Both the position numbers and the translations under genes were made by a program. The notes beneath the pieces were generated by a model. It did no database searches. It saw nothing but the letters and a program-made list of their open reading frames with translations, and was not told where the DNA came from. Shown here piece by piece: positions 32,070-64,000 of a DNA stretch of 64,000 nt. Numbering within the stretch: position 1 is the first letter of the stretch; every line of letters begins with the position of its first letter. This DNA is from Liolophura sinensis (Eukaryota; Mollusca; Polyplacophora; Chitonida; Chitonidae): contig NC_088305.1 in NCBI RefSeq assembly GCF_032854445.1, forward strand, positions 24,647,400 through 24,711,399. Reading direction: 5' to 3'.

Positions 32070-32326
32070 CTGAAGAGAAACCAAAACGTTCCATTCAAAA
32101 AATAATTATGCCACACATTTCTAGTATTTTCGTTTGACAGCATCAAGGTCTATAACTTATAAAATCTATATAACTGTAAGAATTTACGGGAGACTTTTCT
32201 CTTCTAAGGATAGCCTCTTATGAATTCAACCAAATGAATATGTAATGAGTACAGCTGTAAAAGCAGCATGAATGACAATTTTTCACAGATAGTGGTAACT
32301 GAGACTTATTTCACACTTATATTAGT

Positions 32327-43881: not shown

Positions 43882-44335
43882 GTGACGGATTTGATTTTAA
43901 AATGGAAATTTATAGCCTGCATACAAAAGATGAAATTGTCATTTGAGAAAATTCGCCAAAGTATGGTTAATTTTTTTTCCATTTTGTGTATTTAAGATGT
44001 GACTAAGAAGCTCTAATTAATCGATCGTGTTTTTGTCATACTATTGTTTAACATGGTCCATTCATTTAAACTTCAGGCTGAGTGCAAGACGAAACGAAAC
44101 CCTAAACGGAGGATGTTCCAATAGGATTGTGTACAACTCACTGGCTTTAATGAGCAAAACTTTGGATTTTTGTTTCTTCTGTGAAATTGGGGCAGAAGTT
44201 GGCCGATAATTTGTGTGAAATTTTCATCCGGCTTTCGCCCCGTCTACATCAACCATAAACTCGCATCGTTTTCCTGAAATGAAATCTTTTTGAGCACAGC
44301 GCACACACGCATACACAACAATAAAAAAACCAAAA

Positions 44336-44372
<37 letters not shown>

Positions 44373-45107
44373 AAACAGCAAAAAACATAACATAACATTT
44401 AGATATGTGAATAAACTTGATTAGTTTTGTTGTCCGAAATCTAAAGAGTAATTATGTTCTTCTTAACACTGTATCCTCGAATTTTTGCCTTTTATGATCA
44501 AACATTAAACAATTCCACCTGGATCTGGAATAGCCATGTTATTTATTTGTTTGTTTGGTGGTTTTGTGGGGTTTAACGCTGTATAAAGATATTGGTGTAT
44601 GGATAGAAATCGGCGGTGGGTAATTGGAGGTGCACAGGTAAGGGTCGAGTGGTGGGTGTTCAGCTTTCGATGTCGGGTTTCATTTTGGGAACTGGGTTAT
44701 TTGCCATGATTTACCTGGAACGTCCTTTTTGGTTGGCGGCTGGTATACGAATGTCTGTTTCGACGCATAAGTTCACTGCAGGTTAACTTAGTTTATAGTT
44801 CGGCGGTACTATTTAGCAGTGTCCGGTACCACTACAGGGGTGGGCAAAACCACACCAGCCTTGACAACAGTGACCCTGAGAACAATGAAAGCAGGGGAAT
44901 GCAGAAAATTCCATGTCCGAATAAGGGAACGCAAAAAAGAATGATTAAAGGATAATGACTGATGAAACACCACACTGGCAGTATTTCATATCGTGGCGAG
45001 GACATGTTAGAACCGGGAAACAGCTGCATGTCTTTTATGAGAAGGATAACATCCAAAAGCAGAACAAACGGGTAACAGACCTTATACCGACCGAAATAAA
45101 AAGACAT
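43882..45107. other. Intergenic, nothing recognised
   Basis: Contains a (CA)n tract at 44336-44368 and a very degenerate reversed SINE-A tail near 44535-44590. Confidence 0.4.
44336..44368. repeat. (CA)n microsatellite
   Basis: About sixteen CA dinucleotides without interruption. Confidence 0.95.
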
Positions 45108-45445
45108 TTCGGTCGCCTAATGGGCAAGAGCGTCCGCCTCGAATCAAACCCGTGTCGGGTCATACCAAGACTTTAAAAAGGGTGCTGCTTGCTGCCTTGT
45201 TTGGCACTCAACATGCACTGAGAGGTTAGAGCAAGGAAACATGACTCATTGGCCCGGTGTCAGTATAATGTGACTGGATCGAGTGTCATGTCTGGTGTCT
45301 TTGGCTTGATACTTTAGTGGTGGCAGAACTTTAGGGGTATGGACCCGTCCTAACACAAGTAAACACAATATATGTACACACACCTAATGATTCCTCGTCG
45401 TCTTATGACTGCCAAATTGTTCAGTACGAGGTCTGACCAGAAGCA
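45108..45445 (+). mobile_element. SINE-B relative with a different head
   Basis: The head GGTCGCCTAATGGGCAAGAG and CGTCCGCCTCGAATC is tRNA-like. The end CACACACCTAATGATTCCTC, GTCGTCTTATGACTGCC matches the SINE-B type 3' end, followed by a damaged ACGTTAAACC region. It probably represents another subfamily. Confidence 0.6.
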
Positions 45446-45996
45446 TACATACATATATACATATACATACATACTGGCGCTATTGTTGGCCGCGAGCATT
45501 TCCTTTTACGTATTGTATTAATGATTAAGAGACTGCTTTTGCAAAATGTGTGCTGGATACCCACGGCTGATGTAAGATGTTTTTTTTATCTTAGTATGGG
45601 TGTTAGGTGGAAATTTATGTGCCATCCAATATGCAAAATGAGACGTAGTTATAAACCTTCAAACGCACATGTAAAAATGTTACTCATACTTCGCCGTCGT
45701 GACCTTTTCGCAAGGGTGTATATACTGACCCGCTTTAAAAACGCATCAATATGAACCCATGAACATGTCATGATAGTTTGAGAATAACGAAGGAAATATC
45801 CAAGTAAAATATAAGTAAGCTCCAAAGATATTGTCAGGTTTGATAGCGTTTGTGTGAGTCGGGAACAGGATTGAATAACACGTTTTTACTTCCGAAGAGC
45901 ATGAAAAATTCAAAGTGTCATTACTTGTGTGTGCAGAAATAGGGTATAAAGGGGAGGCAATCAAGGTTGTAGCAGCGGAATAGGACTTAGGACGCA

Positions 45997-46390
45997 ATGT
46001 CGCGAATGATACCTGAGGAACGGGAACGCGCAATTGCCTTGACTAAAGATGGTCTGACTACAAGGGCCGTAGAAGCAAGGCTTGGATGTCCCACAAGTAC
46101 CATCACAAGACTGAACCAGCGATTTTAGCAGACTAACACACCCTAGACAGGCAACGACCAGGGCAACCGCGTGCTACAACAGCAAGAGAAGACTGACGTA
46201 TTGCGAGGGCTCATCTGCCCGATCGAACACTTCCGGTGTCCAGAACAGCAGCTACCAATCGTAGGTCAACGAGAAGTTATCAGCGCTGATACTGTACGCT
46301 GGCGTCTTCGCGCCGATGGTTTACGTGCCTGTCGTGCAAACAGGGGTGGGCCTGTACCCGTTACTGACGTTTTCTTTGGACCACTTGTGT
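45997..46390 (+). pseudogene. Tc1-type transposase N-terminal fragment, dead
   Basis: From ATG 45997 the frame reads MSRMIPEERERAIALTKDGL, then TTRAVEARLGCPTSTITRLN and QRF before a TAG at 46126-46128. This is the first helix-turn-helix of a Tc1/mariner-type transposase: AVEARLGCPTSTITRL is the HTH. Beyond the stop, degenerate, frame-shifted remnants of the second DNA-binding half can be followed (arginine-rich GQPRATT-like segment, later LRADGLRACRA at ~46310). The DDE catalytic domain is missing. Neither terminal inverted repeat was found with confidence. Confidence 0.75.
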
Positions 46391-46399
46391 GTTCCATTT

Positions 46400-47397
46400 C
46401 CTCTACATTAAAACTGTGTACTTTCCAATGACACTTGTCATTACTAATGCGCAACTGACTTTTCTGAGTGTGAATATAGTATTCAGCCAACAGCAAACTA
46501 AATTTGGTTTAGCGTCAATTCCACTTTTTATCTCTGGTGCGTTTTGTATTCGATTCAGTATCCAAAGGTTATATAACTGTCACCCTTATACCATATAGTG
46601 GAGACTGATGTCGGTTTCTTTGTGCATGGTCATTAGAAAATACTATATCAGCGCCAACATTTAGGATGAGAAACGGCTTTCATGTTAAATGGGTGGAACG
46701 AGTTAAATATTTGAGTATAGAATTATTTACCGGCACGCAATATTATGAGGAGATAAAAACATCTCCCCTGCATGCATGATCAGCGAAGCGTATAGGGATT
46801 GTCAGTATATGCAAGACAAAACTGAATAAAAACAATACATATGTATACGACTACAGATTACATTTGAGTAACACAACAAAAGAGAAATTGGGAACATTGA
46901 AGTCAACATTTTGGTATTCTACATATTTCAGCGTAATTATATACACAACATAATACCAAAAGGGGGAATTAAAATAAAATGTGTTGAAAGGAGGAGTCCA
47001 CTGATTTAGAACATGTATTTCTTTGATCGCATTATAGTGTTAGACTTTTTCACTTGTCGGTGGAGGAAAGCGCGAAGATCATGTAGTATAGGACAGCTAT
47101 AGGCCTGTGCGGAACTCGCGTGACGGTGTAACACACAGCTTTTCATCATGTACGTGCCGAGCCCTACATGAGGAAGGTACAACTAAGTGATCTCCATGCA
47201 ACGTATTTCATTGCAGCATATGATATGAGGCACTAAGCAATGAAGGCCCGTGGCGCACATTCTGATGTAATAGACTGAAAAACTCTCCGGTCCCATCTCC
47301 AAAAACCTGTTGTCCCACCCAACGGCAAATTTATATGTGAGAAAAAAAGGGCGGGGCCACCGGGGTCAAGGGATTTACAACACGCCAGCTCTACATA
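46400..47397. other. Intergenic, nothing recognised
   Basis: No gene supported in either strand. Confidence 0.4.
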
Positions 47398-47635
47398 GTG
47401 ACTCAGGAACCTCTCGACCAGTGCGGTCGCCGTGAGTTCAAGTTCAGCTTATGCGGGCTTTCTCTCCGGTCGTACGTGGGAATGTCTTCCAGCAACCTGC
47501 GGATGGTAGTGGGTTTCCCCCGGGCCCTGAACGGTTTCCTCCCTCCATAATACTGGCCGCCGTCACATAAGTGAAATAGTCTTCAGTGCTGCGTATATAT
47601 ATCACCAATCAAATAAATAAATAAATAAATAAATG
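47398..47635 (+). mobile_element. SINE-A copy, 5' end lost
   Basis: It starts at GTGACTCAGGAACCTCTCGA, contains CGGTCGCCGTGAGTTCAAGT, AGCAACCTGCGGATGGTAGT, GTGAAATAGTCTTCAGTGCT, and ends CACCAATCAAATAAATAAAT. Confidence 0.9.
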
Positions 47636-47739
47636 GTGGTGCTACAAGATAGGTCTATCCTCTCTCTATATATAGGCCTATATTGACAATCAGTTATGAT
47701 TTACATGTGTTACGTGACTAAAAAGCTAAAACTAAATCG

Positions 47740-48140
47740 TAATGCGACCCGCGTTATAACTTTTAGGAACTTTATTACCGAGTTTGCACGGCAACACGCG
47801 AACAGACGAGGTTAAAAACAAACCCTGGATTTGTGCTCATTGAATTTCGCCAAAATCTCCAGCATAGCTTCTTTAAGGATAATCCTATAGGGCTAATGCT
47901 GAATTGTGTTACGATTTCATTGAAATTTGATTAGGCCTATTATAGAACCCGCGATGTAGGCCTAGATGGATCTGCATGTTACGGGGGCCTAGCTGTTAGT
48001 GCCATTCGAAACTTATAACATTTTCTAATGATTTACCATGAAATGTACCCGCGATGTAAACGTTTTCTACCCGGTGTAAAACTTTGCACTGAAGTACAAA
48101 AGTTTTCTCCGCGGAGAAAACCGCGTTATAACGTTTGCCG
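47740..48140. repeat. Recurrent CCCGCG-TAA motifs and a 20-bp palindrome
   Basis: Related short motifs occur at ~47752 (ACCCGCGTTATAACTTTT), ~47950 (ACCCGCGATGTAGG), ~48049 (ACCCGCGATGTAAACG), ~48069 (ACCCGGTGTAAAAC) and ~48120 (ACCGCGTTATAACG). 48102-48121 is the perfect palindrome GTTTTCTCCGCGGAGAAAAC. I do not recognise the element. Confidence 0.55.
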
Positions 48141-48327
48141 TATCACGCCTATATGTCTATACGAAGAAAGACTCCTTTAAAGCACCTACACAGGCTATAG
48201 GCCTTTTAGTACCGTATATATGCTATGCCTTAGTAGACCTACTCGTTCTATATCAGACCTCCTTACGATTATTCAGTTCTATTAAATTTTGAGGGTTTTT
48301 TTTCTTCTGATAATTTACTTGATTTGA

Positions 48328-48398
48328 TTTAACAATTTCTGATATTTACCAGCTCCACAGACCTTTAGGGCCTAGGCTAAATATCACAAATTGTTAAA
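48328..48398. repeat. 21-bp inverted repeat, 29-nt spacer
   Basis: The left arm TTTAACAATTTCTGATATTT (48328-48348) pairs with 48378-48398 at 20 of 21 positions. Confidence 0.8.
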
Positions 48399-49062
48399 AA
48401 TGGCCCCATAGTGTATTATTACCCGGTAGCTGTCCACGTGCTTTAAAAACGCATCAGTATGAGTCTAGCCTACATTTGTGTAGCACATAAGTAATAAGCG
48501 GTTTTTAAAAATATTTTTATGTCTGTAAATATTCTTTTCGTATTTTTATGAGTTTGTATGAAATTTGCGACGTGAAAAGCCATGGATCGGCGTTTCTCAT
48601 AGTAAATACGAAACTACGGCGGGCACTTGTTTATGGTTCGTTGTCCTCGTGAGAATTGGAATCAACTGACTTTTCATTCACTGGAAAGTTTGAAAGCAAC
48701 AACTTCTCTAACAGACAGTAGGTGTATCCTTCTACAGCAGCTGTGCCCGTCCGTCAAGCGAAAGGCGTTGTTACCAACATCGAAGACAATGAACGTTTAT
48801 ATAATTAACTTTCTTTGCTGACGGCTTCATAAAACAAACTGCACTTTAAGGGCATTGGGTGTCCAATTTCCGTACAGCAGGGCTTTCAAACATAAATGTT
48901 TGACGCGAAGTTGGTTTGGGTCTTTTAAGCTGAATCTGTTGTCACGCGGTAGAGTTTTGTCAGTTCATTGGAGAACCGCCTTTTCAAATTGAACATCTGA
49001 GAAGGGACGCCGCGACTAACAATAAGCATCAACCAAGCAAGCCTTTACACTACAACAGCCGA

Positions 49063-49092
49063 TTTTACATTAATCATACGATTAATGTAAAA
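49063..49092. repeat. 13-bp perfect hairpin
   Basis: TTTTACATTAATC, loop ATAC, then its exact inverse GATTAATGTAAAA. Confidence 0.9.
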
Positions 49093-49467
49093 ATTGACAT
49101 GTACAAGTATACTTGTAAAACAGTCCACATTTGTCCATACAGGGCAACACACCCATAGTTTTAGGAAGAAGGTACTTCCTATTTTATATGCTGTGTGAGA
49201 TAGGGACAAAGATATTTAAAGTGAAATGCAGATACTGGAATCTGCTTTTCCTGAACAAATGTTAGGTGACGACACCGTTAAATATTAACTGGGCCTCAGT
49301 TTCAGAACACATATTAACCAGTGGAAGGTATTAAAAGTTCATGTTTTTGTATTAAAACAATGAAATAATAAACTGTTGGCCAGCTCCTGATGAATGAGAC
49401 CCCAAAGTGGAAATTTTGCCAGTGGTTCAGTTGAGATTTGTCCTGTTCCCCCACCCTCCACCTCTAG

Positions 49468-49508
49468 CTCTCTGCTTAACTCAAGAAAGCAGAGATTTAA
49501 GCAGAGAG
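49468..49508. repeat. 11-bp inverted repeat
   Basis: CTCTCTGCTTA at 49468-49478 and its exact inverse TAAGCAGAGAG at 49498-49508. Confidence 0.8.
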
Positions 49509-49786
49509 ACTTTAAAAATGAAAAATTGCTTGTAGATTGAGTAGCTGAATAAGACTTTTGATTTTATTTTGAAAACATATTTCTTGCGTTCTAGATTTTA
49601 TTTTGTTCATATTATTTCCAGTCAAATCTGTAGCTCGAATTTAGGTAAGGCTACACATTGTGGAGATAGGAGTGCACTGATATGGACATGGGTCTTCTAA
49701 TTTCAGATATCAACAAATTTGCTTTCATCCAGATCTTGGTTTATACTAACATAACTCAACAATGAAAGGCTCAAAGTAATTGTTCA

Positions 49787-49929
49787 GGCTGGCTTCCTCT
49801 CCAGCTGTACATGGGAAGGTCTGCCAGCAACCTTTGTATGGTCTGCCCAGTTTCCTCCCACCATCATGCTGGCCGCCGTCGTACAAGTGAAATATGGCGT
49901 AAAACACCGATCAGATAAATAAGTAAATC
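49787..49929 (+). mobile_element. SINE-A 3' part with deletions
   Basis: GGCTGGCTTCCTCTCCAGCT, GGTCTGCCAGCAACCTTTGT and GCTGGCCGCCGTCGTACAAG, with AATATTCTTGAGTACGG reduced to AATATGG, then CACCGATCAGATAAATAAG. Confidence 0.87.
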
Positions 49930-49992
49930 AAAGTAATCGTGAAACAGCGAATATATACAACATATATAACACCACCAGAAATTAAGATTAAC

Positions 49993-50233
49993 TTCCTTCG
50001 TGGCTCAGTTGGTAAACGCGCCAGCGTAATGACCCAGGAGCCTCTCACTAATGCAGTCGCTGTGAGTTCAAGTCCTCTCTTGCCGTAAGTAGGAAGGTCT
50101 GGCAGCAACCTACAGATGGTCGTGGGTTTCCCCCGGGCTCTGCTCGGTTTCCACTCACCATAATGCTGGCTGCCGTCATATAAGTGAAATATTCTTGAGT
50201 ACGGTGTAAAACACAAATCAAATAAACAAAATA
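49993..50233 (+). mobile_element. SINE-A, near full length
   Basis: The head TCCTTCGTGGCTCAGTTGGT, then GCGTAATGACCCAGGAGCCT, GCTGTGAGTTCAAGTCCTCT, the conserved 3' domain, and the tail CACAAATCAAATAAACAAAA. Confidence 0.93.
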
Positions 50234-50482
50234 AAGATTAATCTAATTGCGTTCAAAGACAGTAGCATGGACAAAAACACGTGCATCTCTTTGTATTCCT
50301 TATATACATGTATAAACTATCATGTGAAACAACGTGTTAATTTAGGGCGCCTCACCTGTGCTTTTTGAAAAAAAAAACCATTTCATTCCATTAAACAGCT
50401 AAGAAATGCAGCCGGTATAAACCGTAAACTTTGGATGATTAATTAGACAATGTTCTTGTCAGAATTTTCCAAAAATGAGGGT

Positions 50483-50740
50483 AAGGTGGCGAGGGGGTAG
50501 CATGCCAGCATGGCGCAATGACCCAGGAGCCTCTCGGGAATGTTGTCGCTGTGAGTTCAAGTCCAGCTCATGTTGGCGTCCTCTCCGGCCATACATGAGA
50601 AGGTCTTCCAGCAATCTGTGGATGGTTGTGAGTTTCCCCAGGCTCTGTTCGATTTCATCCCACCATAATGACGGCTGCCGTCGTATAAGTGAAATATTCT
50701 TGAGTACAGCGTAAAAAAAAAACAATCAAATATATAGATA
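50483..50740 (+). mobile_element. SINE-A, near full length
   Basis: The head is diverged (GTGGCGAGGGGGTAGCATGC). It then has GGCGCAATGACCCAGGAGCC, GCTGTGAGTTCAAGTCCAGC and AAGTGAAATATTCTTGAGTA, and an A-run tail. Confidence 0.9.
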
Positions 50741-50912
50741 ACATTTTTTTATATAACAGAGCCCTGACACTCTCATATTTGCTTGAGGGGTTAACAGATG
50801 AACTGACTAGGACATGGGAAATTTGGATAGATACCTTTGACTGGATCACTGAATGATAGAGGGTGCCTACATGTATGTGTAGAACTGAACAGAAGGGAAA
50901 TAATCAGTCAAG

Positions 50913-50961
50913 ATGGCAGATGATGGTGAAGTTGAAGTATGCCCCCCAGCTACCAAGAAAG
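50913..50961 (+). CDS. SLC40A1: Ferroportin exon 1
   Basis: Encodes [16 protein letters not shown], an acidic cytoplasmic N-terminus; ends in phase 1 at the donor GTATGT. The link to exon 2 rests on phase and on the good start context (TCAAGATGG). Confidence 0.75.
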
Positions 50962-53900
50962 GTATGTGAGAACATTTTTGGATACTTTTTCACTTTTTTT
51001 TTCTTTTATTAGAAAGCAAATTTTTATTCTTTTTTTGGAGACATTTGTTGGAGACATTAAAGTACATGATTGAAAACTATCTGCAATACTTTACTCTTTC
51101 CTCAGATACACCCATATTATAAATGAATCTTATGTCCCTTTCACAAAAATTTATATCCGGATCTAATTTGAACCGGTTTATATCAAAGTCAGTTTAAAAA
51201 TGCGTGCCTTCACACGATCATGTGACCAGGCCGGTTTTAAGCCAGTTCAGGCATTTGTTCCATCACAAGGTCACATTTTGGCTGGAGTAGTAATTGCAAC
51301 GTCATCCTAACATTGTAACCGGTAGCACAGTTGGTAGAGCGTCCACTTCAGTAGGCAGTAGATCCAGGGTCAATCCTGGGTCGAGTCACACTTAAGACTT
51401 TAAAAGAGGAAGTTGTAACTTCCTCGCTTGGCGTTCAGCATGAAGGGGATAGTGCAATGACTAGTTAACCTGAGTTAGTATAATGGCCCGGGCGGGGCGA
51501 CACTTGCCTTCGAAAATGCCTCTCAGTGAAGCAGCACTAGATAAAAGAGCGGTGGAAATCCACCTTGCAAACGAGGTACATTACATGCACTCGAGCGATT
51601 CCTTCATCGTCATGTGACTAAAAAATTGTATAGTATGACGTTAAACCCCATGCACTCACTCTTAACTTCGTATCCGCGACATTTACCATTCACACAACAC
51701 AGATAAACCAGCTCAAGACATGAAACTGGCTAAGAACAAAAATGTTATAAAAAGCCAAGTTAGGAGTATGTAAGACTTAATTTTTCTCCTCCTTGGAACC
51801 CAAACATGTACATGTACATGGTTTTGAACTGAAATGGTTTAACACACAGGTGAAGAACTTGACAGACAAACCATGTCAACTTTTCAAGAAGTGTCTTTTT
51901 GTTATAAAATTAATGCTAATAGGAGCAATTAGCACATGTCATGTACCTCAATAAATTATGCCTGTTCAGACCTACATATAAATGACCTGTGGAATGTGTC
52001 AGTCTGTACATATCAGTTGCAGCGGTATGCCAAACCGTGGGCATACTTGAGTGTACTGACCACAAAAGAATAGATATGCTTTTAAAGGAGAAGAAAACCT
52101 AAAAACATGACACTATTGACTGAAAAGAGCACATTTTTTCTATCTGATGGTGCCTGCTGCATAATTTTGCCATTTTCCTTGCCATACATGTAAAGCCTGA
52201 AAACGGCAAACCTGGCATAAATCACTTAGTCCATCGTGTCCTCCATCTTTAACACCCTGTAATTTATGCTGGGGTTGTGTTGCCTCTCAGCCATTGAGAG
52301 TCGCTAAAACTGCTGGCTTGTTCGTGTAAACGGAACTTAAGTCCAACATTCCGGTTTCCCGATTGTCAAGCGGAAAATGAACTGTACCGTTCGCTACCCT
52401 CTGGGAAGAAGAGTTCTACCGGAAATGTATGAACTGCACTTCGGTAGTTTCCGACGGCAAATCTCCTCCTAACACAGAAGACTTCAGGACTAGTTCTTAG
52501 GCAAAATGGAGTCGCCCACAGCGGATTTTGGTGCTGACTTTATTTATAATTTATCAACTTTAGGTACAGATTAGAATGTTTTTCATGGCATGAACCTGCA
52601 AGGAAACGCATACTCTTTTCAATGGTATTTGATTGATATTTAAATTTTCTTCTCCTTTAACAAATGAGACATACCTTAACTCCTCAACATTTTTGCATAT
52701 GAAAAAAGCAACTTTCAACGACAGATCTGTTTTTGATAATTTTTTCTACAGAGAGATGTTCTCAGTGGATGAATACTCCAGCTTTCTCAGTGTATGTGAT
52801 GAAAGCTCTTTCATCATGGGTAAGTACTGTAACTGATTAGTATTTGTTTATTGATTGGATAGGTGTTTTATGATGTATTTAAGAATATTTCACTCATACA
52901 ACCACCAGCTGAGTTATTATACAGGTTATTTCTTGGAATAACGTCATTGACATTGACATTAATTTCTTATTCCAAAGTGTTTTTCTCGTGGAGTGAGCTG
53001 GTACTTGTAGAAGGTTCAGTTCTCATCATATTGATTGATGCAATTGGAAGAGAATAGGTATTAGAGTGCCCGTTATTTTTTGTTCCATCTACTAATTAAA
53101 CTAGGTGCTATTTGGGGGCCTCCTTGGCTCAGTCGGTTGGCGCGCTAGTGCAGCGTAATGACCCAGGAGCCTCTCACCAATGTGGTCGCTGTGAGTTCAA
53201 GTCCATCTCATGCTGGCTTCCTCTCCGGCCGTAAGTGGGAAGGTCTGCCTGCAACCTACGGATGGTCGTGGGTTTCCCCCAGGCTGTGCCTGGTTTCCAC
53301 CCACCATAATGCTGGCCGCCGTCGTATAAGTGAAATATTCTTGAGTACGGCGTAAAACACCAATCAAAAAAAAAAAAAAAAAAAAAAGGTGCTATTTGAT
53401 GCCCAGGTGAAGAAATTTTCTTTTTTTGTGAGGACGGTCATTTTTATGGGTGACGGAAACCTTTATGGCGCCTGTGGTATAAAACCTGTGCGCTTTGGCA
53501 AGTTACCGACTTTCCTGGACACAAAGACACAGTTTTCCTGCAGTGCAAGCTGCAAGCTGGTCTCCAACTAACATTAAACTGCTCACACATTAATTCTTAC
53601 TAAGGCTCGATGTTTGTTGAAAAAAACAAAACATGCTGAAGTTGTTTTACCCCTTGGTCCTGAAGCTCCAGCGTGCTCCTCCCAAAACCCCCATTATATG
53701 TATTTTGTGTTCATATGATTTTGAAAGAAAGCTATAAAGCAACCAGCATTATAAATTTTACAAGCCTTATGACTGATTTTGAACAGTAAAACATGCCCAG
53801 GGGAAGTTGATATTTTATGAAAGCTAATTATTTGGGCTATTTCAAAACATCAGGTGGTGGTGGTGGTGGTGGTGGGGGGGCTTCGTGGTTCAGTTGGTTA

Positions 53901-56900
53901 GCGTGCCCAGAAGCCTCTCACCAATGCTGTCGCTGTGAGTTCAAGTCCAGCTCATACTGGGTTCCTCTCTGGGAAGGTCTGCCAGCAACCTGCGGATGGT
54001 CGTGGGTTTCCCCAGGGCTCTGCCCGGTTTCCTCCCACCATAATGCTGGCTGCCGTCGTATAAGTGAAATATTCTTGAGTACGGCATAAAACATCAATCA
54101 AATAAATAAATCAAATCGAAACATCCGAAAAAATTTGATTGGATTTGGGCTCATCAAATTTTTTGTCAAAAATCTCTGCGTGACATAATCTCTTTAAGTT
54201 TGAAATTATCCACCCCTCTGACGGTCAGTCCTTATCTCTGTTCAGGGTGACCGCATGTGGATGTTTGCCGTAGGACTGTATCTGGTCAAACTGTCCAACG
54301 TGACCCTGACACTGACAGCTATTTATGGCCTAACAGGTGGGGTGTGTGTCATCCTGCTGGGTGCCCTTGTGGGGGATTGGGTGGACCGCAACCCAAGACT
54401 TAAAGGTGGGTAACTGTTACAAGCGGTTATCGTTCTTAACATGGTTCATTTCATGCTAAACAAGGCCAACATTTACTCAAAATTTGTTTGGTGTTTAAGT
54501 ATATGTAATTTTGCAGTATTCAAGAAAATTTTACTTACTTGAGAGAGGCCAGGTTGATTTGTGGAGGAAATCAGAGTGCTTGGAGCATTAAAGGTGGAGA
54601 AAGCATACACACTACATCAAGTTCAGATGAAAGAGTCCAGAAATATAGTTGTAAATGTGGTCTTCAATATTTGTTTTGCTTTTTCTTTGAAAGGAAAAAG
54701 GCACTTGAAAATAATTTTTGTATGGTGGGTATTTGGGGCAACATTTTGGTATTTGTAGTCTTTGTGTAATAATGTTATAAATGATGATTTAATACATGAT
54801 TAATAAATACAGTTGCACTAGAATTCAGTCTTCTCAGCCAAAAAATGTGTTAAACCTTGATTTGGATCATATCTATATTATTAACATATACATAAATATT
54901 ATCATAATTCAGATTAAACGCATATGTTTGGATATAAACAAAAAATTCACATTTGAATTTATTTATTAGACATGAAACACATCCTTATTTAGAACATTAT
55001 AATACAAAGATAATAAAAACAAAAAGGTGATCCCAAATACCCACGACACAAAAACATTTTCGAATACCCTTTCTTCCTGGAAAAAAAAAGATGAAAAAAA
55101 AATTTGAAAAACCAAATTTGCAAATAAGTTCTGGCTTTTTCATCTGATTTTGGCATCATTTTTATGTTTTCTTCTCCTTTAAACAAGTATGTATATCTTA
55201 CAAACCTCCTAACTTAAAGTGGTCTTCCAGCAACCTGCAGATGGTCATGGGTTTCCGCAGGGTTCTGCCTGGTTTCCTCCCACTATAATGCTGGCCGCCG
55301 TCGTATGAGTGAAATATTCTTGAGTACGGTTTAAAACACCAATCAAATAATAAAATAAATCCTAACTTAAAGTAGTCTGCCAGCAACCTGCAGATGGTCG
55401 TGGGTTTCCCCCGGGTTCTGCCCAGTTTCCTCCCACTATAATGCTGGCCGTCGTCGTATAAGTGAAATATGGCGTAAAACACCAATCAAATAAATAAATA
55501 AATAGAAAATCGTTGTTGTGTATTGCTTATTTGCTGGGCCAGGTTGGTGATCTTCTTCTTCCCGCCTCCATACAGTGGCACGGACTTCCCTGGTCATCCA
55601 GAACACAGCGGTCATCGTGTGTGCGGTCATCCTATGTGTTGTGCTGACCTACTACCAGAAGATACTGACCATCTGGCCCATCCACCTAGCTAACATCTGC
55701 TCTGCGCTGATCATCGCTGCAGCCGTCGTGTCTAAACTGGCCAGCATTGCCACTAAGATCGCCGTGGAGAAGGATTGGGTTGTGGTGATGGCAGCAGGCA
55801 ACAAGGATAGGCTATCAAGTAAGCCAGCAGATGGTTGTTATAAACCCTCTCTGAAGTGTGAAGACTGGTGGTATAGGATGTGTTGTGTTCTGTCTTTTTG
55901 TCTGTTCATCTGTCGCTCTGTGCTGTCTCTCTGTCCATCTGTATTTTCAGGTGTCTGTTTGTCGATCTGTATGTCAGTCCATCTGTCTGACTTCGCTCTC
56001 TGTTCGTCCATCTGTCTGCTTGTGCTGTCTATCTCTCTATGTTGTCTGCCCATTGATCTGCTTGTGCTGTCTACCCCTGTGTCAGTTTGTGCTGTCTTTC
56101 TGGCCATCAGTCTGCACATCTGTGTTAATCTATCAGTCTTTTTGTCTGTGCTGTCTGCCCATTTGTCAGCTTGTGTTGTCTGTCTGTCTGTTCATGCTGT
56201 CTGCCCATTTGTCTGTTAATTTTTGCTGATTGTCTATCCACACTGTCTACCAATTTGTCTGCTTGTGCTGTCTTTCTGTCCATGCTGTCTGCCCATCTAT
56301 CTGTCCATCTGTCTTGTCTTTACATCTGTCTCTGTCCATTTGTCTGTCTGTGCTGTCTCTCTTTTCATCTGTCGTTTTGTGGTGTGTGTCTGTCCATCTA
56401 CCTGACTGTGCTGTCAGTCCATCTATCTGACTGTGCCAGCTGTCCATCTACCTGACTGTGCTGTCTGTCCATCTATCAGACTATGCTGTCTGTCCATCTG
56501 TCTGTCTGTGATTTCTCTGTCTTTTTGTCTGTTTGTGCTGTTTGTCCAATGGTATATTAATTTGTTGATCTGTATCTCTGACCATCTGTCGGACTATGCT
56601 GTTTGTTCATCTGTCTGACTGTGTTGTCTCTCTGTCCATCTATCTGACTGTGCTGTTTTTCTGTTCATCTATCTGACTGTTGTCTGTCTGACCATCTGTC
56701 TGACTGTACTGTTTGTCCATTTAGCTGACTGTGTTGTCTGCCAGCCTGTCTGTCTCTGCTGTCTGTCCATCTGTCACTGGTGCCAACAAGCACCAATTCA
56801 CAATAATGCTCACCTGCTTCTCAGTTTTAATCTCTAGGGGATAAAATGAGTTTAAATCTAAAGCTTGATCAGTTACCATTGTTCAGTTTAACACTTAATA

Positions 56901-59900
56901 AGCTGGACATGAAGACTCAGAGCAGCTATATGTAAGAAGTGGGGAGGGAGAACAATGGTGTGTATGGTATGATATAAGTTGGATTAAATATGATGTAATT
57001 GGATTAAATATGATGTGCCAGTGCGGTCGCTGTGAGTTCAAGACCAGCTCATGCTGGCTTCCTCTCCGGACGTACATGGGAAGGTCTGCCAGCAACCTGC
57101 AGATGGTCGTGGGTTTCCCCCGGGCTGTGCCCGGTTTCCACCCACCATAATGCTGGCCGCCGTCGAATAAGTGAAATATTCTTGAGTACGTCGTAAAACA
57201 CCAATCAAAAAAAAAATAAATAAAATATGATGTGACATAAGCTGTTTATATGCCTCCGCCATGATAAAGAGCGTATTATGTTATAGCAGTTTTGTTCGTC
57301 TGTTTTGTATGGAGAGTTTCCACCTGTTACTAAATAAATCTTCTCCCCTTTTCTCTCTTCAGCCATGAATGCGTCCATGCGCCGCATCGACCTGCTGTGT
57401 AACATCCTGGCACCTGCGCTCGTGGGTCAGGTCATGACCTTTGCGTCCATGGTGATGGGTGCTGTGGTTATCGCCGGTTGGAATCTTGTCTCTGTTTTCG
57501 CGGAGTATTACTTACTGTGGAAAATATACAAGGCAGTCCCCAACCTGGCCATCAAGAAAGTCAAGGGTAAACTGCTAGCACAATACTGTATTTCACTTTT
57601 TTTTTTTTTTTTTCTTTAGCTTTTTTTCAGGTGGCAAATTTAGCTTCTTTTTTTTTAGGATTCATCCACCTAATAGGGTACTGTAAAGTTTTCTTATGTC
57701 AAGTTTGGGATTTCCCAACGGGGTCTGCTCTTTTTCCTCCCACCATAATGATGGCCGGTATCGTGAAATATTCTTGAGTGTGGCATAAAACACCAATCAA
57801 ACAAAATGAGTGTGAAGTTTGATTAATTTCTTGTCGGAAAAGAACATGGTGGCACCCGAAGTCTCATTTAAGAAGCCTTTGTGTCTTTCTGAATGTGTAT
57901 TTTTTACATGCCAAACTCTAAATGAAATACAGTAATATTTGTATAGGTAAGATTAAAAAATACAGAGAAGTGAAATAAAATGAAGTAATAAAGTAATATT
58001 CATATAGAATATAGATGTTAGCATTTCACCAGACATCAAGTCTCACTCGGTTACAACATATAGATGTTAGCATTTCACCAGACATCAAGTCTCACTCGGT
58101 TACAACATATAGATGTTAGCATTTCACCAGGCATCAAGTCTCACTCGGTTACAGCATATAGATGTTAGCATTTCACCAGGCATCAAGTCTCACTCGGTTA
58201 CAACATATAGATGTTAGCATTTCACCAGACATCAAGTCTCACTCGGTTACAACATATAGATGTTAGCATTTCACCAGACATCAAGTCTCACTCGGTTACA
58301 ACATATAGATGTTAGCATTTCATCAGGCATCAAGTCTCACTCGGTTACAACATATAGATGTTAGCATTTCACCAGGCATCAAGTCTCACTCGGTTACAAC
58401 ATATAGATGTTAGCATTTCACCAGGCATCAAGTCTCACTCAGTTACAACATATAGATGTTAGCATTTCACCAGGCATCAAGTCTCACTCGGTTACAACAT
58501 ATAGATGTTAGCATTTCACCAGACATCAAGTCTCACTCGGTTACAACATATAGATGTTAGCATTTCACCAGCCATCAAGTGTCACTCGGTTACAACATAT
58601 AGGTGTTAGCATTTCACCAGGCATCAAGTCTCACTCGGTTTCAACATATAGATGTTAGCATTTCACCAGGCATCAAGTCTCACTCGGTTACAACATATAG
58701 ATGTTAGCATTTCACCAGACATCAAGTCTCACTCAGTTTCAACATATAGATGTTAGCTGTGAGACTTACAGCTGGTATGAAGCTCTGTCAAGACACTATA
58801 CTAGCAGCAGTCGGAACACTACATCTAGTTCTTTATCCCGTTTTACTGAGTGACAAGCCAGTTAAGTACCAGGTTAGAACTTCAAAATTTTGAATTGATT
58901 TGATTTTATTGTTGTTCAGTGCCATAATCAAGAAAATTTCTCTGATACTCAGGTGGTCAGAGAACAGGAGAGCCCGCAGTGAATTACCTACCTTAGTTAC
59001 CTGCATGTGATGTACAATGTACTGATGTCCTTATATTGTTGGAAAACAAGTGGTATTCTTTGAACATTAGACTGCACAAACAGCCACACTGCACCAACTT
59101 TAAAATGAGAAAAATTTATTTATTTATTTATTTATTTATTTGATTGGTGTTTTATGCCTTACTCAAGGATATTTCACTTATAAAATAAAAAGGAATAAAT
59201 AGGAAACCCGGGCAGAGCCCGGGGGAAACCCACAACCATACGCAGGTTGCTGACAGACCTTGCCACTTACGGCCTGAGAGGGAGCCAGTATGAGCTGGAC
59301 TTGAACTCACAATGACCACATTGGTGAGAGACTCCTGGGCCATTACGCTGTGATAGCGCACTAACCAACTGAGCCACGGAGGCCCCTGAGAAAAATAGAA
59401 GTTGCCTGTACCTTCCAGCCAGGATGCAGATGTTGACATAAAAAGTCTGTTATCCATGTATAAATTTTACACAAATACAGTTATTTTTAGCATTGGTATT
59501 TGCAGGTAGAACAGTAGTTAAAAAAAATTCTGAAAAAATTCAGTTCTCTCCAGGTTTGCCAGAGGACAAGACCAAAGCCAAAGATGTACCATCTCCATCT
59601 GATACAGAGACAGGGGAAGCAGAACGTCTTGTGGAGGAAGGTGCCATGGATGGGAAGAAGGTTGGGGAGACAGAGAGCACCCCTCAGAATGGGGTGAAGG
59701 CACCCCAGAAGAAGAGTGTGGCAGAGCTTGTGTTTGGCCGGTTTATCACCCTGTACAAGGGTTGGAGCGTGTACCTCCGTCAGAAGGTTCTGCCTGCCGG
59801 GATAGCCTTCTCCTGTGAATTCCTGACCATCCTGGCATTCGACAGTATTACATCAGGTCAGTAACAATTTGTGGGCTTGATAAACAGATTCAGCGTAAGA

Positions 59901-62900
59901 TAACAAATTGGGGGCTTGATAGACAGATTCAGCCACAGATAACAAGTTGTGGGCTTCATAGAAAGATTCAGCCACAGATAACAATTTGTGGGCTTGATAG
60001 AAAGATTCAGCCACAGATAACAATTTGTGAGCTTGATAAACAGATTCAGCCACAGATAACAAGTTGTGGGCTTGATGGATGATGGACAGATTCAGCCACA
60101 GATAACAATTTGTGAGCTTGATGGACAGATTCGGCTACAGATAACAATTTGTGGGCTTGATAGAAAGATTCAGCCACAGATAACAATTTGTGGGCTTGAT
60201 AGACAGATTCAGCCATGTATAACAATTTGTGGGCTTGATGGAAAGATTCAGCCACAGATAACAATTTGTGGGCTTGATAAACAGATTCAGCCACAGATAA
60301 CAAGTTGTGGGCTTGATGGATGATAGACAGATTCAGCCACAGATAACAATTTGTGAGCTTGATGGACAGATTCAGTCACAGATAACAATTTGTGGGCTTG
60401 ATATACAGATTCAGCCACAGATAACAATTTGTGGGCTTGATAAACAGATTCAGCCACATATAACAATTTGTGAGCTTGATAGATTCAGCCACAGATAACA
60501 ATTTGTGGGCTTGATAGACAGATTCAGCCACAGATAACAATTTGTGGGCTTGATAGACAGATTCAGCATAAGATAACTATTTGTGAGCTTGATAGACAGA
60601 TTCAGCCACAGATAACAATTTGTGGGCTTGATAGAAAGATTCAGCCACAGATAACAATTTGTGGGCTTGATGGATAATACACAGATTCAGCCACAGAGGA
60701 GCCTCTCACTAATGCAGTTGCTGTGAGTTTAAATCCAGCTCATGTTGCCTTCTTCTCCGGCCCTACTGGGGAAGGTCTCAGCAACCACCGGATGCACATG
60801 AAAGAGGTGGCTTTTAGTGGGAAATTTTTTTTCTTATTTGCAATTTTTTGTATGGAGTTTAGATGAGTATTCTTGGTTACTTAGTCTCAGTTTTAGGCCT
60901 CTGTGGCCTCTCAACCATGCAGTTGCTGTGAATCCAAGTTCAGCTCATCCTAGCTTCCTCTCAGATTGTACTTTAGAAGATTAATGCTTGCCGCTATCGT
61001 GTAAGTGAAATATTCTTGAGTACGACATAAAACATCAGTCAAATAAATAAATAGTCTAAGTGCTGTATCAGAGCGACATTCATTAGAAGCCTGCAAGTGC
61101 TGGTATCTACTTTTCTTTCACTTAACAGGCATAGCGAAGATTGATCAAACTAAAGACGAATAAACTCCCACTTTGTTTTATACCCACCAAGCCTTAGCAC
61201 CAGAGTTTGTATGTATTTAAACCATAATTTACCTTCCCTGCTGTTAAAAAATTCAGCTGGCCCGTCAGGTTTTCTTAGCACAACTCACATCAGCCTGGCA
61301 AAGATTTAACTTCATTATTACCACTACCTGCAGTATATGATTCAATGTTGAATATTTTTTTTGCTGGAATCATTTTTCGTGGTAAATTATTGACTGCGAA
61401 ATCCGCGAAAATTAGTTCCATGCTCAAGAGCCATTCACTCTGTGGTGATGGTCAGGTGTATGAGTGGAGAAAACTGGAGTATCGGGTATAAACCACTGCC
61501 CTGTTCCAGATAAGACACACCTTATGACTTTATTCTCCAGCTGACTGCTGGATTAGAGCACACCCAACTTCTTTTGTCGAAGGCTGGAAATTCATAGTTA
61601 TCCTGGGCCTAAGTCACAAAACATGAATGGAGGCTTTCATGACCAAGTGGTTAGCACAATGACCCAGGAGATTCTCACTAATGCTGGGGGTCCACCTCAT
61701 GCGGGCTTCTCTCCTGTCATACGTGGGAAGGTGTGGGTTGTGGGTTTGCAGGAGCCCGGTTTCTTCTCGCAATAATACTGGTCGTACTAAGTGAAATTTT
61801 CTTGAATATGGTGTAAACCTCCAATCCAATAAATAAATCAAACAATATTAAAACATGAATGTTTTCAATCCCAGCCTTGGAGAGGTAAATGTCAAAATTC
61901 TGCTGCCTTCTCTGTTTTGGGGACTGTGGTGACTCGAAATGGTCAACATCACACGTTGGACCATTTAAGCCTTCTTACATAAAGTTGTGGAGTTTTTCAG
62001 CAGATGGCCAGCGTGAAATATTGTTGAGTAAATAAAGTATAAATAAAGCGTAGAGATTGATTGAGTCAGCAAAATAAAGTCACTGCATAAAAGTCACTCT
62101 GTAAAACTTAAACTGGGATAAACTGACAGTTTATGTGGGATTATTTTCCAATTAACGTCCTCTGATCACTGCTCCGGTTAAACTCTCCTTCTTCTCCACA
62201 AGTCCCATGACTCACTATGTCAATCAGTCAGTCAATTATTCAGTCAGACACTTATGTCTCTAACTGTTTCAGGATTTGCCTACTCTCAAGGTCTTGCCGA
62301 GTACGTCATTGGCTTGTTGATGGCTGCCGGAGCAATCACAGGGATCGCCGGGACTTTCGTGTTCCCAGTTCTAAGACAGCGTATCGGTCTGGAAAGGACA
62401 GGACTGGTGGCGTTTGTGGTGTTCATCTCTTGTCTGACTCTCTGTATTGCTTCCATATGGGCACCAGGAAGTCCTTTTGATCCAGCTTTCTCAAAAAGGC
62501 AGAATGCAGGCTCATTCAACACTAACTGCACAGGTGGACGAATGTCTGTTAATCTATCGTCAGTTATAGGTCTTGAAACAAGGGGAGGTAACTCTAGTGG
62601 TGACGTGAACAGAAGATTGGTGAGAAGAGAGGCTTCCCTGGCTAATACTATGCAGTATTTTGAGCACTTTTCAAATGATTTGGCATTTGATGTGGATGAA
62701 ACAGTTTTCCTTTTTCAGCCAGGTATTTTGCGGGAATTATTTTCCATGGACACGTCAGATAATTTCGATTTGGTGTTGCTAGGAGATCAAGGCCACAGCG
62801 CGGAGAAAAAACTAATTGTCAGTCGTCGGATTAGGGCTGTGACCAATGGGACATCAGATAGTGTGGGTTATGCTTCAAATTACGGTAACGAGACTTTGGG

Positions 62901-63324
62901 GAACTGCTCTGAGAATACGCCAGCACAGTCTCACTCCTTCATCTCCATAAGCCTTCTCATGGCAGGAATCGTTAGTGCTAGATTCGGACTGTGGCTGTCG
63001 GATTTGACCATAACACAAGTGTTCCAGGAGAATGTCGCAGAAACTGAACGAGGGGTTGTCGGCGGGGTTCAGAGTTCACTGAACATGCTCATGGATGTCA
63101 TCCGCTATGCCATGGTTGTCATAGCACCCGACCCGGAAACTTACGGAATCCTTATCATCATATCTTTCCTGTCTATTTGTACAGGGGCGTGTTTCTTTGC
63201 TTACTATGTCAAAAAGAAACAGGGCTACTTTTGTGTAGAAAGCTGCCCATGCTCTGGGACCCAAACAGAAAGTGTTAACAGAAAAGAAAGTCCTGCAGAA
63301 AATGCTCCTGTTACTGAGCTTTAG
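50913..63324 (+). CDS. SLC40A1: Ferroportin-family iron exporter, seven exons
   Basis: Iron efflux transporter of the plasma membrane (SLC40, major facilitator fold). CDS = join of 50913-50961, 52752-52819, 54246-54405, 55576-55818, 57363-57566, 59506-59856, 62273-63324: 708 codons, all junctions GT-AG and in phase. Family blocks in order: [12 protein letters not shown] (~37-48), [49 protein letters not shown] (~174), [29 protein letters not shown] (~353), [20 protein letters not shown]-like and [13 protein letters not shown] near the C-terminus. Human ferroportin has 571 residues; the excess lies mainly in the intracellular loop (exon 6) and one extracellular loop (exon 7). Of the human metal ligands D39, H43, C326 and H507, only the Asp is kept (D41); the others are M45, S355 and R636. 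C326, needed for hepcidin binding, is thus absent. The start ATG has A at -3 and G at +4. I am sure of the family; iron transport by this copy is inferred. Confidence 0.95.
51318..51661 (+). mobile_element. SINE-B, full length, in ferroportin intron 1
   Basis: The head GGTAGCACAGTTGGTAGAGC, then GATCCAGGGTCAATCCTGGG (box B), GAGGAAGTTGTAACTTCCTC, CTCAGTGAAGCAGCACTAGA and GACGTTAAACCCCATGCACT. The best reference copy of this family here. Confidence 0.95.
52752..52819 (+). CDS. SLC40A1: Ferroportin exon 2
   Basis: A 68-base exon after TTTTTCTACAG and before GTAAGT. It reads [20 protein letters not shown] then SSW, which corresponds to the first helix of human ferroportin ending LSTW just before GDRMW. 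The residue aligned with human His32 is Lys. Confidence 0.88.
52846..52910 (-). mobile_element. SINE-A tail fragment
   Basis: TTGATTGGATAGGTGTTTTA, then TTAAGAATATTTCACTCATA: the reversed 3' end only. Confidence 0.7.
53118..53387 (+). mobile_element. SINE-A, full length with a pure A tail
   Basis: GGCCTCCTTGGCTCAGTCGG, GCAGCGTAATGACCCAGGAG, GCTGTGAGTTCAAGTCCATC, GTCGTGGGTTTCCCCCAGGC and TGAGTACGGCGTAAAACACC, then CAATC and about 23 A. It is close to the family consensus throughout. Confidence 0.96.
53877..54110 (+). mobile_element. SINE-A copy
   Basis: The head GGCTTCGTGGTTCAGTTGGT with a deletion before CCCAGAAGCCTCTCACCAAT, then the complete 3' domain and CATCAATCAAATAAATAAAT. It is preceded by a short (GGT)n tract. 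Confidence 0.93.
54246..54405 (+). CDS. SLC40A1: Ferroportin exon 3
   Basis: Begins [16 protein letters not shown] and ends [11 protein letters not shown]. It contains Asp41 (human D39) and Met45 at the place of human His43. Acceptor CTGTTCAG, donor GTGGGT. Confidence 0.95.
54500..54600 (-). mobile_element. SINE-A, very degenerate
   Basis: GCAGTATTCAAGAAAATTTT, ACTTACTTGAGAGAGGCCAG and GGAGGAAATCAGAG resemble the reversed 3' domain. Confidence 0.4.
55209..55350 (+). mobile_element. SINE-A 3' half, tandem copy 1
   Basis: Preceded by CCTAACTTAAAGTGG; it contains CCAGCAACCTGCAGATGGTC, CTATAATGCTGGCCGCCGTC and TGAAATATTCTTGAGTACGG. Confidence 0.92.
55364..55505 (+). mobile_element. SINE-A 3' half, tandem copy 2
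   Basis: Preceded by the same CCTAACTTAAAGTAG, so the flank was duplicated with the SINE. It shares the variant CTATAATGCTGGCC with copy 1 and has lost the TTCTTGAGTACGG segment. Confidence 0.92.
55576..55818 (+). CDS. SLC40A1: Ferroportin exon 4
   Basis: [18 protein letters not shown] through [17 protein letters not shown], two to three membrane helices. Acceptor TCCATACAG, donor GTAAGC. Confidence 0.95.
55885..56785 (+). repeat. CTGT/CCATCTGT-rich array in ferroportin intron 4
   Basis: About 900 bases of degenerate CTGTCTGTCCATCTGT and CTGACTGTGCTGT units, starting ~70 bases after the exon 4 donor. The lack of stops in some frames yields Cys/Leu/Ser-rich open frames that are not genes. 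Confidence 0.92.
57015..57224 (+). mobile_element. SINE-A, head truncated
   Basis: It starts at CAGTGCGGTCGCTGTGAGTT, then CCAGCTCATGCTGGCTTCCT, the 3' domain, CACCAATC, an A-run and AAATAAAATA. Confidence 0.93.
57363..57566 (+). CDS. SLC40A1: Ferroportin exon 5
   Basis: [18 protein letters not shown], then [18 protein letters not shown], the most conserved part of the family. Acceptor TCTCTCTTCAG, donor GTAAAC. Confidence 0.95.
57707..57805 (+). mobile_element. SINE-A 3' fragment
   Basis: TTTTTCCTCCCACCATAATG, GTGAAATATTCTTGAGTGTG and CACCAATCAAACAAAATG. Confidence 0.8.
58012..58757 (+). repeat. 49-bp minisatellite in ferroportin intron 5
   Basis: About 15 head-to-tail units of exactly 49 bp (TAGATGTTAGCATTTCACCA...CAAGTCTCACTCGGTTAC), very homogeneous; most changes are single substitutions (CAGACATC/CAGGCATC). 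Confidence 0.97.
58894..58982 (-). mobile_element. SINE-A, degenerate
   Basis: TTGATTTTATTGTTGTTCAG, TAATCAAGAAAATTTCTCTG and AACAGGAGAGCCCGC follow the reversed 3' domain loosely. Confidence 0.5.
59115..59386 (-). mobile_element. SINE-A, full length
   Basis: Plus strand: six TTTA repeats, TTTGATTGGTGTTTTATGCC, GCAGAGCCCGGGGGAAACCC, GAGCTGGACTTGAACTCACA, AACCAACTGAGCCACGGAGG and CCCC. A stretch of the 3' domain is replaced by AAAATAAAAAGGAATAAATA. It lies ~120 bases before exon 6. Confidence 0.95.
59506..59856 (+). CDS. SLC40A1: Ferroportin exon 6
   Basis: The first ~75 codons encode a charged, disordered cytoplasmic loop (Lys/Glu/Ser/Pro-rich) poorly conserved in the family. The end, [20 protein letters not shown] to LAFDSITS, re-enters the membrane and carries Ser355 in place of human Cys326. 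The donor GTCAGT is also the start of a minisatellite. Confidence 0.92.
59857..60692 (+). repeat. 39-bp minisatellite starting at the exon 6 donor
   Basis: About 20 units of ~39 bp (AACAATTTGTGGGCTTGATA, GACAGATTCAGCCACAGAT), some with GATGGATGATAG insertions. The first unit begins in the donor itself (GTCAGTAACAATTTGTGGGC). The unit is 13 codons long and open on both strands, but exon 6 reads into a stop after two codons. Confidence 0.95.
60697..60798 (+). mobile_element. SINE-A 5' fragment
   Basis: GAGGAGCCTCTCACTAATGC, GCTGTGAGTTTAAATCCAGC and GGGGAAGGTCTCAGCAACC; the 3' domain is absent. Confidence 0.8.
60893..61053 (+). mobile_element. SINE-A with internal deletion
   Basis: GGCCTCTGTGGCCTCTCAAC, GCTGTGAATCCAAGTTCAGC, then TTAATGCTTGCCGCTATCGT, AATATTCTTGAGTACGACAT and CAAATAAATAAATAG. 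Confidence 0.85.
61054..61627. other. Intron 6 sequence, nothing recognised
   Basis: Unique-looking intron DNA; no exon is needed here for the protein to be continuous. Confidence 0.5.
61628..61842 (+). mobile_element. SINE-A, degenerate
   Basis: GAGGCTTTCATGACCAAGTG, GCACAATGACCCAGGAGATT, AATACTGGTCGTACTAAGTG and TCCAATCCAATAAATAAATC. Confidence 0.82.
62273..63324 (+). CDS. SLC40A1: Ferroportin exon 7 (terminal)
   Basis: [18 protein letters not shown] at the start, [18 protein letters not shown] and [16 protein letters not shown] near the end, stop TAG. Between TM helices, about residues 460-585 form an enlarged extracellular loop with six N-x-S/T sites. The C-terminal tail is Cys/Ser-rich. 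Confidence 0.95.
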
Positions 63325-64000
63325 CTTATTTGCAGCTTTGTTTTACAGATCTTGAAATGTGTTACAAACCATGATCATATATATGTACTTGAACAAGTGT
63401 AGCAAACTGTGTGTACTCTTTTGCTAAATGTAACATATAGTGTGAAAAAGCCAAACAAAGCATATCTGCACCAAGTGGAGATAACCACGTTTTTAGAAAC
63501 GTTGGGCAGGTTGAAATCTACTTAAATAATTAGAGCACCTTTTGGAGTGGAAACCCAGTGTTCTACATGTTATTTTTGTACTTTATATGAAATTACCAGA
63601 GATCTATACATTATGTCATGACAGATATGAGGTTTTATATTGGTGTTTTATAGGACGAGCTTCTTAATTTTAGGACGGCTTCATAGCCCCATTACAGTTT
63701 TTTGGGATCTTCAGTTTTATATTTACATGTATCAACAAGTTTACTACATTACAGTTTTGACCATTTCCTATTTGAAGATGGGTCCTCATGTTATTTGCAT
63801 TCTGTCCCAGATTTGTTTTTTTGTTATGGACAGTTTAATTGAAATCTGTTTTAACTGTGTCAATTTTCCTTATCGATGGTGTTATATTTTTCTTCTAGAG
63901 GTTATGGTAAAGTACTAACCGTACATTTTGACATTTTAAATATTTATTGGAAGGATAAATGATATGTGTGATGGTGTCTCCCTATTCAAGGATCATATCT
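63325..64000 (+). other. SLC40A1: Ferroportin 3' untranslated region / flank
   Basis: T- and A-rich sequence after the stop. I see no AATAAA signal before the end of the window and no CAGTGN loop with a paired stem, so the message may end beyond the window or use a variant signal. Confidence 0.5.

What the first reader, a model, noticed from the sequence alone, without database searches (positions are those of the whole stretch)
50913..63324. Ferroportin with three of four human iron ligands replaced
The spliced 708-residue protein is clearly a ferroportin. Known from structures of human ferroportin: iron or cobalt binds D39 with H43 in one lobe and C326 with H507 in the other. By alignment of the flanking blocks ([27 protein letters not shown]) this protein has D41, M45, S355 and R636. 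An Arg at the H507 position is a striking change because it puts a positive charge at a cation site. Either the substrate, the mechanism or the site has changed, or this is a paralog with another role. Some invertebrate ferroportins may also lack H43 and C326; I cannot check how common the Arg is.
Basis: partly seen in the sequence, partly recalled or inferred. Interest (0 to 1): 0.75.

Follow-up and report, generated by a model that had tools for sequence, protein, structure and literature searches.

The report
Ferroportin lacking human metal-ligand residues
The gene makes an ordinary-looking animal iron exporter that lacks three residues binding metal in the human protein; all four copies found in this genome lack them, and human versions with either of two of the same changes still export iron.

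Summary
The "striking" reading mostly fails. (1) The genome search found four ferroportin loci, none canonical: column 43 is M/L/Q/S, 326 S/N/N/N, 507 R/K/K/K. (2) A review reports Cys326 as a vertebrate residue that arose with hepcidin; no hepcidin match reaches its cut-off here. (3) Human C326S and H507R are published hepcidin-resistant alleles that keep iron export. (4) Five bacterial homologues also lack H43, C326 and H507; the related Bdellovibrio protein transports Fe2+. D39, Q99, N212, E219, R466, D325 and D504 are intact in the window copy. Most likely it is a hepcidin-blind iron exporter in which R620 permanently supplies the positive charge that human H507 may supply by protonation. 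What remains interesting: neither metal site has a histidine, so proton coupling may be weak. Other invertebrate ferroportins could not be sampled, and the organism was not identified. Paralog B has lost D39 and its reading frame.

The parts
50913..50961 (+). coding exon 1 (start codon, N-terminal tail)
   Evidence: splice model without stops
52752..52819 (+). coding exon 2 (start of TM1)
   Evidence: splice model; aligned to PDB chain
54246..54405 (+). coding exon 3; holds D41 (=D39, 54249-54251) and M45 (=H43, 54261-54263)
55576..55818 (+). coding exon 4; holds Q and N of the Ca2+ site (=Q99, N100)
57363..57566 (+). coding exon 5; holds N and E of the Ca2+ site (=N212, E219) and D181
59554..59856 (+). 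coding exon 6 (alternative start 59506 gives 708 aa); holds T333 (=T320), D338 (=D325, 59841-59843) and S339 (=C326, 59844-59846)
62273..63324 (+). coding exon 7 with stop; long TM9-TM10 loop (152 residues), D617 (=D504, 63094-63096) and R620 (=H507, 63103-63105). The intron that the other three loci have after the ARFG motif is absent here

Best explanation
A functional ferroportin (SLC40 family, MFS fold) of a non-vertebrate animal (inferred from 45-48% identity of the copies to human) that exports divalent metal, most likely Fe2+, and is not regulated by hepcidin. Shown: gene intact; D39, Q99, N100, N212, E219, D181, T320, D325, D504, R466 and the cytosolic-gate residues R88, D157, N174, R178, R489 kept; H43, C326 and H507 replaced; the same three lost in the other three loci found. 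Inferred: the metal binds through D39 in the N-lobe (helped perhaps by the M45 thioether) and through D325/D504/T320 in the C-lobe. R620 stays positively charged and pairs with D325/D504 when no metal is present, doing permanently what protonated H507 is suggested to do in the human protein; proton coupling through the two histidines is then reduced or absent.
For: Pfam FPN1 453.1 bits; 44.8% identity to human over 480 columns. D39, Q99, N212 and E219 are intact in the window copy, in C and D and in 5 of 5 bacterial homologues, while columns 43, 326 and 507 differ from human in 9 of 9 non-human sequences aligned. Human C326S and H507R keep surface expression and export (PMC6789780, passages). 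Tarsier double mutants at S1 or S2 still transport, with weaker H+ coupling and electrogenic transport (PMC7655804, passages). The Bdellovibrio protein transports Fe2+ and Co2+ (PMC4633820, passages). C326S human protein keeps cobalt binding, T320 and D325 are proposed to compensate, and an inward-open model places D325 3.1 A from H507 (PMC12594662, passages). No hepcidin match over its cut-off in the genome.
Against: No transport, expression or localisation data for this protein. The tarsier S2 double mutant is clearly slower than wild type. I found no published test of H43M. The human alleles carry one change each; this protein carries three at once, and also differs in TM7 (Glu at human 317, Phe at the inner-gate Tyr318). 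No iron-responsive element was found in window 44000-64000 or in L005-L007 at E up to 5, so there is no regulatory sign of an iron role.
Confidence: 0.7

Rival explanations
1. Substrate switch: with M45 as a soft ligand and no His/Cys, this copy exports a different metal (for example Mn2+, Co2+, Cd2+ or Cu+), while other copies handle iron.
For: Residue 43 differs in every copy (M, L, Q, S), which would fit specialisation. In Nramp a methionine ligand is crucial for Cd2+ but not for Mn2+ binding (PMC10185341, passages).
Against: No copy found in the genome has the human set, so 'another copy does iron' has no special support. D39, D325, D504 and the Ca2+ site are kept in A. Divergence at 43 fits relaxed constraint as well as specialisation.
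Confidence: 0.13
2. Non-transporting or regulatory paralog: a positive charge at S2 blocks metal binding and the protein does something else.
For: Arg/Lys at a cation site is electrostatically unfavourable on its face; paralog B shows that copies can decay (D39A, frame break).
Against: Human H507R exports iron. The conserved transport core is kept in A, C and D, which is not expected if transport were lost; B, the broken copy, is the one that lost D39.
Confidence: 0.1
3. The ligands are present but misassigned by wrong splicing or alignment.
For: The gene model is from sequence alone; one acceptor (59506 or 59554) is ambiguous. A Cys (C329) lies ten residues before S339.
Against: The four residues lie inside exons with gap-free flanks to PDB chains, and the same columns are non-His and non-Cys in three other loci read separately.
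Confidence: 0.02

Closest known systems
Human ferroportin SLC40A1 (PDB 8dl6; species recalled)
   Same: Full-length FPN1 profile match; D39, Q99, N100, N212, E219, D181, T320, D325, D504, motif A and cytosolic gate residues
   Different: H43->M, C326->S, H507->R, Y501->M, N144->K; TM9-TM10 loop of 152 against 52 residues
Human SLC40A1 alleles C326S and H507R
   Same: Same residues at two positions; published as retaining export while resisting hepcidin (PMC6789780)
   Different: Single substitutions in a protein that keeps H43; the window protein has both plus H43M
Bdellovibrio ferroportin homologue BbFpn (PDB 5aym)
   Same: Transports Fe2+ and Co2+ (PMC4633820); its five relatives read here have the D39/Q99/N212/E219 cluster and lack H43, C326 and H507 counterparts
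   Different: His at the D325 position and Leu or Ile at 507 in the five relatives, no positive residue there
The other three ferroportin loci of this genome (B, C, D)
   Same: Lack H43, C326, H507; positive residue at 507; 43.7-45.6% identity to the window copy
   Different: Lys not Arg at 507, Asn not Ser at 326, keep the ARFG intron; B lacks D39 and has a frame break

Membership tests
Ferroportin family (SLC40, Pfam FPN1 PF06963) | Profile match over curated cut-off along the full length | tested here: met
   453.1 bits vs 24.6, profile 4-430 of 430
Ferroportin family (SLC40, Pfam FPN1 PF06963) | Ca2+/D39 cluster D39, Q99, N212, E219 (reported as strictly conserved, PMC6079014, passages) | tested here: met
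   4 of 4 present in the window copy
Ferroportin family (SLC40, Pfam FPN1 PF06963) | Motif A and cytosolic gate: G80, D84, R88, D157, N174, R178, R489 | tested here: met
   7 of 7 present in the window copy
Ferroportin family (SLC40, Pfam FPN1 PF06963) | Efflux of Fe2+ | not testable with these tools
   Needs a transport assay
Mammalian-type two-site Fe2+/2H+ antiporter | S1 ligands D39 and H43 | tested here: not met
   D kept, H43 is M45
Mammalian-type two-site Fe2+/2H+ antiporter | S2 ligands C326 and H507 | tested here: not met
   S339 and R620
Hepcidin-regulated vertebrate ferroportin | C326 with Y501 and H507 in the hepcidin pocket | tested here: not met
   S, M, R
Hepcidin-regulated vertebrate ferroportin | Hepcidin gene in the same genome | tested here: inconclusive
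   0 of 3 listed PF06446 matches over the cut-off; best 22.6 vs 27 bits; exon-wise search, gaps and withheld stretches possible

The most novel reading that the evidence does not exclude
This animal's ferroportins are naturally proton-uncoupled: with no histidine in either metal site and a tethered cation (Arg/Lys) at S2 replacing the proton, they export Fe2+ electrogenically, driven by voltage and gradient rather than by H+ antiport. If so, H43 and H507 are later fittings for proton coupling and hepcidin control, not the ancestral iron site.
Probability: 0.3. Interest if true: 0.5.

Novelty: new member of a known kind. Interest (0 to 1): 0.27.

Why it matters
Structures of mammalian ferroportin define two metal sites by D39/H43 and C326/H507. 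A genome whose four ferroportin loci all lack the two histidines and the cysteine, while the three unbroken ones keep the D39/Ca2+ cluster, D325 and D504, points to the acidic residues as the conserved transport core and to His/Cys as features tied to proton coupling or hepcidin control. The protein is a natural triple mutant with which the disputed Fe2+/H+ coupling could be tested.

Tried and rejected
Canonical second copy in the genome: PF06963 search; 23 of 23 listed matches fall in four loci, none canonical. Hepcidin: 0 of 3 listed matches over the cut-off. Iron-responsive element: none among the matches at E up to 5 in window 44000-64000 or in L005-L007; the rest of the window was not scanned. 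The ferritin search (5 exon matches) only showed that an ordinary iron-storage family is present. The search for related loci with the alignment of C, A and D confirmed no relative in genome contigs or viral contigs (0 of 35 and 0 of 6 pattern stretches); a bacterial fragment found five loci. Nine literature searches on ferroportin (one search was on Nramp) brought up no paper that, in what I saw, treats Arg/Lys at 507 or loss of H43 in invertebrates. What I saw is limited: listings were capped (30 of 86; 25 of 2,248; 15 of 891; 8 of 31), I looked at passages of 13 papers and read no whole paper, and figures and supplements were not available. So I make no claim that it is unpublished. Among the 13, PMC7850002 (chiton genome) held none of the four terms sought, and PMC11817551 and PMC9883014 bear only on background. 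A promoter scan of 50800-50920 uses a bacterial consensus and means nothing here. The organism was not identified. Glu at human G339 is shared by all four copies and by 5 of 5 bacterial homologues, so it is not a compensating change for R620.

Mended: the checkpoint note gives R621; the right number is R620. In the table the rows 474, 482 and 490 are tarsier numbers put on the human chain; the human residues are D473 (kept in 4 of 4 copies), Q481 (kept in A only; Leu in B, C and D) and R489.

Full report
The gene. The window carries an intact ferroportin gene on the + strand at 50913-63324. Seven exons, with AG/GT at the six introns, give 692 residues and no internal stop. Pfam FPN1 matches over its whole length with 453.1 bits. 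Identity to the human chain is 44.8% over 480 aligned columns.

The four columns. phmmer against PDB chains aligns D39 with D41, H43 with M45, C326 with S339 and H507 with R620, with no gap near any of them (that chain 8dl6 is human is recalled, the output names only the protein). MAFFT with the other copies gives the same columns. Within 12 residues of the four positions the only His or Cys is C329, ten residues before S339 at human 316; C and D have Cys there too.

Other copies in the genome. A whole-genome search with FPN1 listed 23 matches, all on contig C11 and all in four loci: the window (A) near 24.70 Mb, B near 27.69 Mb (L005), C near 27.73 Mb (L006) and D near 30.52 Mb (L007). I spliced B, C and D by hand; their first coding exon was not sought. 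Column 43 reads M, L, Q, S; column 326 reads S, N, N, N; column 507 reads R, K, K, K in A, B, C, D. So 0 of 4 copies is canonical and 4 of 4 have a positive residue at 507. D39 is kept in 3 of 4; B has Ala. D325, D504, D181, T320, Q99, N212, E219 and R466 are kept in 4 of 4; N100 in 3 of 4 (B has Tyr). N174 and Q481 of the cytosolic gate are kept only in A, so there A is the more human-like copy. B also has five extra bases, apparently a duplication, that break the frame in the exon after FDNITTG; it is likely a decaying copy or an assembly error.

Wider family. Five bacterial loci, four titled as Bdellovibrio, Bacteriovorax or Bacteriovoracaceae and one as an uncultured proteobacterium, were aligned to the four copies and the human chain. 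D39, Q99, N212, E219 and R466 are present in 5 of 5; column 43 is Asp in 5 of 5, 325 is His in 5 of 5, 326 is Gly in 5 of 5, 504 is Thr in 5 of 5 and 507 is Leu in 4 and Ile in 1. Among these ten sequences the human chain is the only one with H43, C326 or H507. Of the four mammalian-type PDB sequences only 8dl6 went into the alignment. No other animal was available, so I cannot say how common R/K at 507 is among invertebrates. A maximum-likelihood tree (419 columns; LG+G4) joins A with B, C and D apart from human with moderate support (SH-aLRT 88.8, ultrafast bootstrap 79); FastTree gave the same grouping (0.945). If right, the duplications are younger than the split from vertebrates, and the simplest reading is that a positive residue at 507 predates them.

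Gene structure. B, C and D have an intron directly after ARFG; the window copy does not. A published comparison says eight exons is usual in animals apart from C. elegans (PMC5665920, passages). The simplest reading is intron loss in A. The TM9-TM10 loop of A has 152 residues against 73-75 in B, C and D and 52 in human.

What the literature says about the same changes (passages read, no whole paper). C326 is reported as strictly conserved in vertebrates that have hepcidin and replaced in invertebrates (PMC8235187). C326S and H507R are listed as definite hepcidin-resistant alleles with retained export and membrane expression (PMC6789780), and as gain-of-function (PMC11919020). C326S keeps cobalt binding, and D325 and T320 are suggested to compensate (PMC12594662). 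On D39 the papers disagree: D39A is reported as unable to transport iron (PMC12594662), while the tarsier D39A/H43A double mutant moves Co2+ only slightly more slowly (PMC7655804). In that tarsier work C326A/H508A is clearly slower, and both double mutants lose part of the pH dependence and become electrogenic. Ca2+-site residues D39, Q99, N212 and E219 matter for human activity (PMC6079014). The bacterial protein transports Fe2+ and Co2+ (PMC4633820).

Mechanism. Shown here: the conserved acidic and Ca2+-site residues are intact and the His/Cys set is absent. Inferred: metal passes D39 (perhaps with M45) and then D325/D504/T320. In the human protein H507 may be protonated without iron because of nearby D325, and a model places them 3.1 A apart when inward-open (PMC12594662). 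R620, or Lys in the paralogs, would be a permanent version of that protonated state. This explains why a positive charge is tolerated at a 'cation site' and predicts weaker proton coupling. It has not been tested. The window copy also has Glu at human 317 and Phe at human Tyr318, which none of the other nine aligned sequences has; Tyr318 is proposed as part of the inner gate (PMC12246770, passages). What these do is unknown.

Regulation. No iron-responsive element was among the matches in the 20 kb scanned around the gene or in the three other loci.

Verdict. A real but mostly ordinary finding: a ferroportin of a non-vertebrate animal (inferred, not identified) that cannot be hepcidin-controlled in the known way. 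The open and moderately interesting point is whether ferroportins without either histidine still couple to protons.

Noticed in passing
L005:2330-2341 and L005:6132-6613 (G000 C11 near 27.69 Mb): Ferroportin copy B has Ala at the D39 position and Tyr at N100, and five extra bases break its frame; it looks like a decaying copy, or an assembly error.
   Followed up: partly
window 62273-63324 compared with L005, L006, L007: The window copy lacks the intron after ARFG that the other three copies have.
   Followed up: yes
window 59814-59822: The window copy has Cys-Glu-Phe at human 316-318 in TM7; Glu317 and Phe318 are not seen in the other nine aligned sequences.
   Followed up: no
window 58009-58757 and 59862-60671: Two minisatellite arrays in introns of the gene: 49-nt unit, 15.3 copies, 97% matches; 39-nt unit, 20.5 copies, 87% matches.
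   Followed up: no
window 6317-9025: Large tandem array, 47-nt unit, 58 copies.
   Followed up: no
window 29202-32105 (-): 968-residue open frame with QRICH1 and DUF3504 matches, possibly from a mobile element (inference, not tested).
   Followed up: no
window e.g. 53120-53370, 53880-54110, 57010-57220: Copies of a dispersed repeat ending in ...ATTCTTGAGTACGGCGTAAAACACCAATCAAA in the introns; resembles a SINE (recalled resemblance, not tested).
   Followed up: no
window protein residues 413-564: The TM9-TM10 loop is 152 residues against 73-75 in the other three copies and 52 in human.
   Followed up: no
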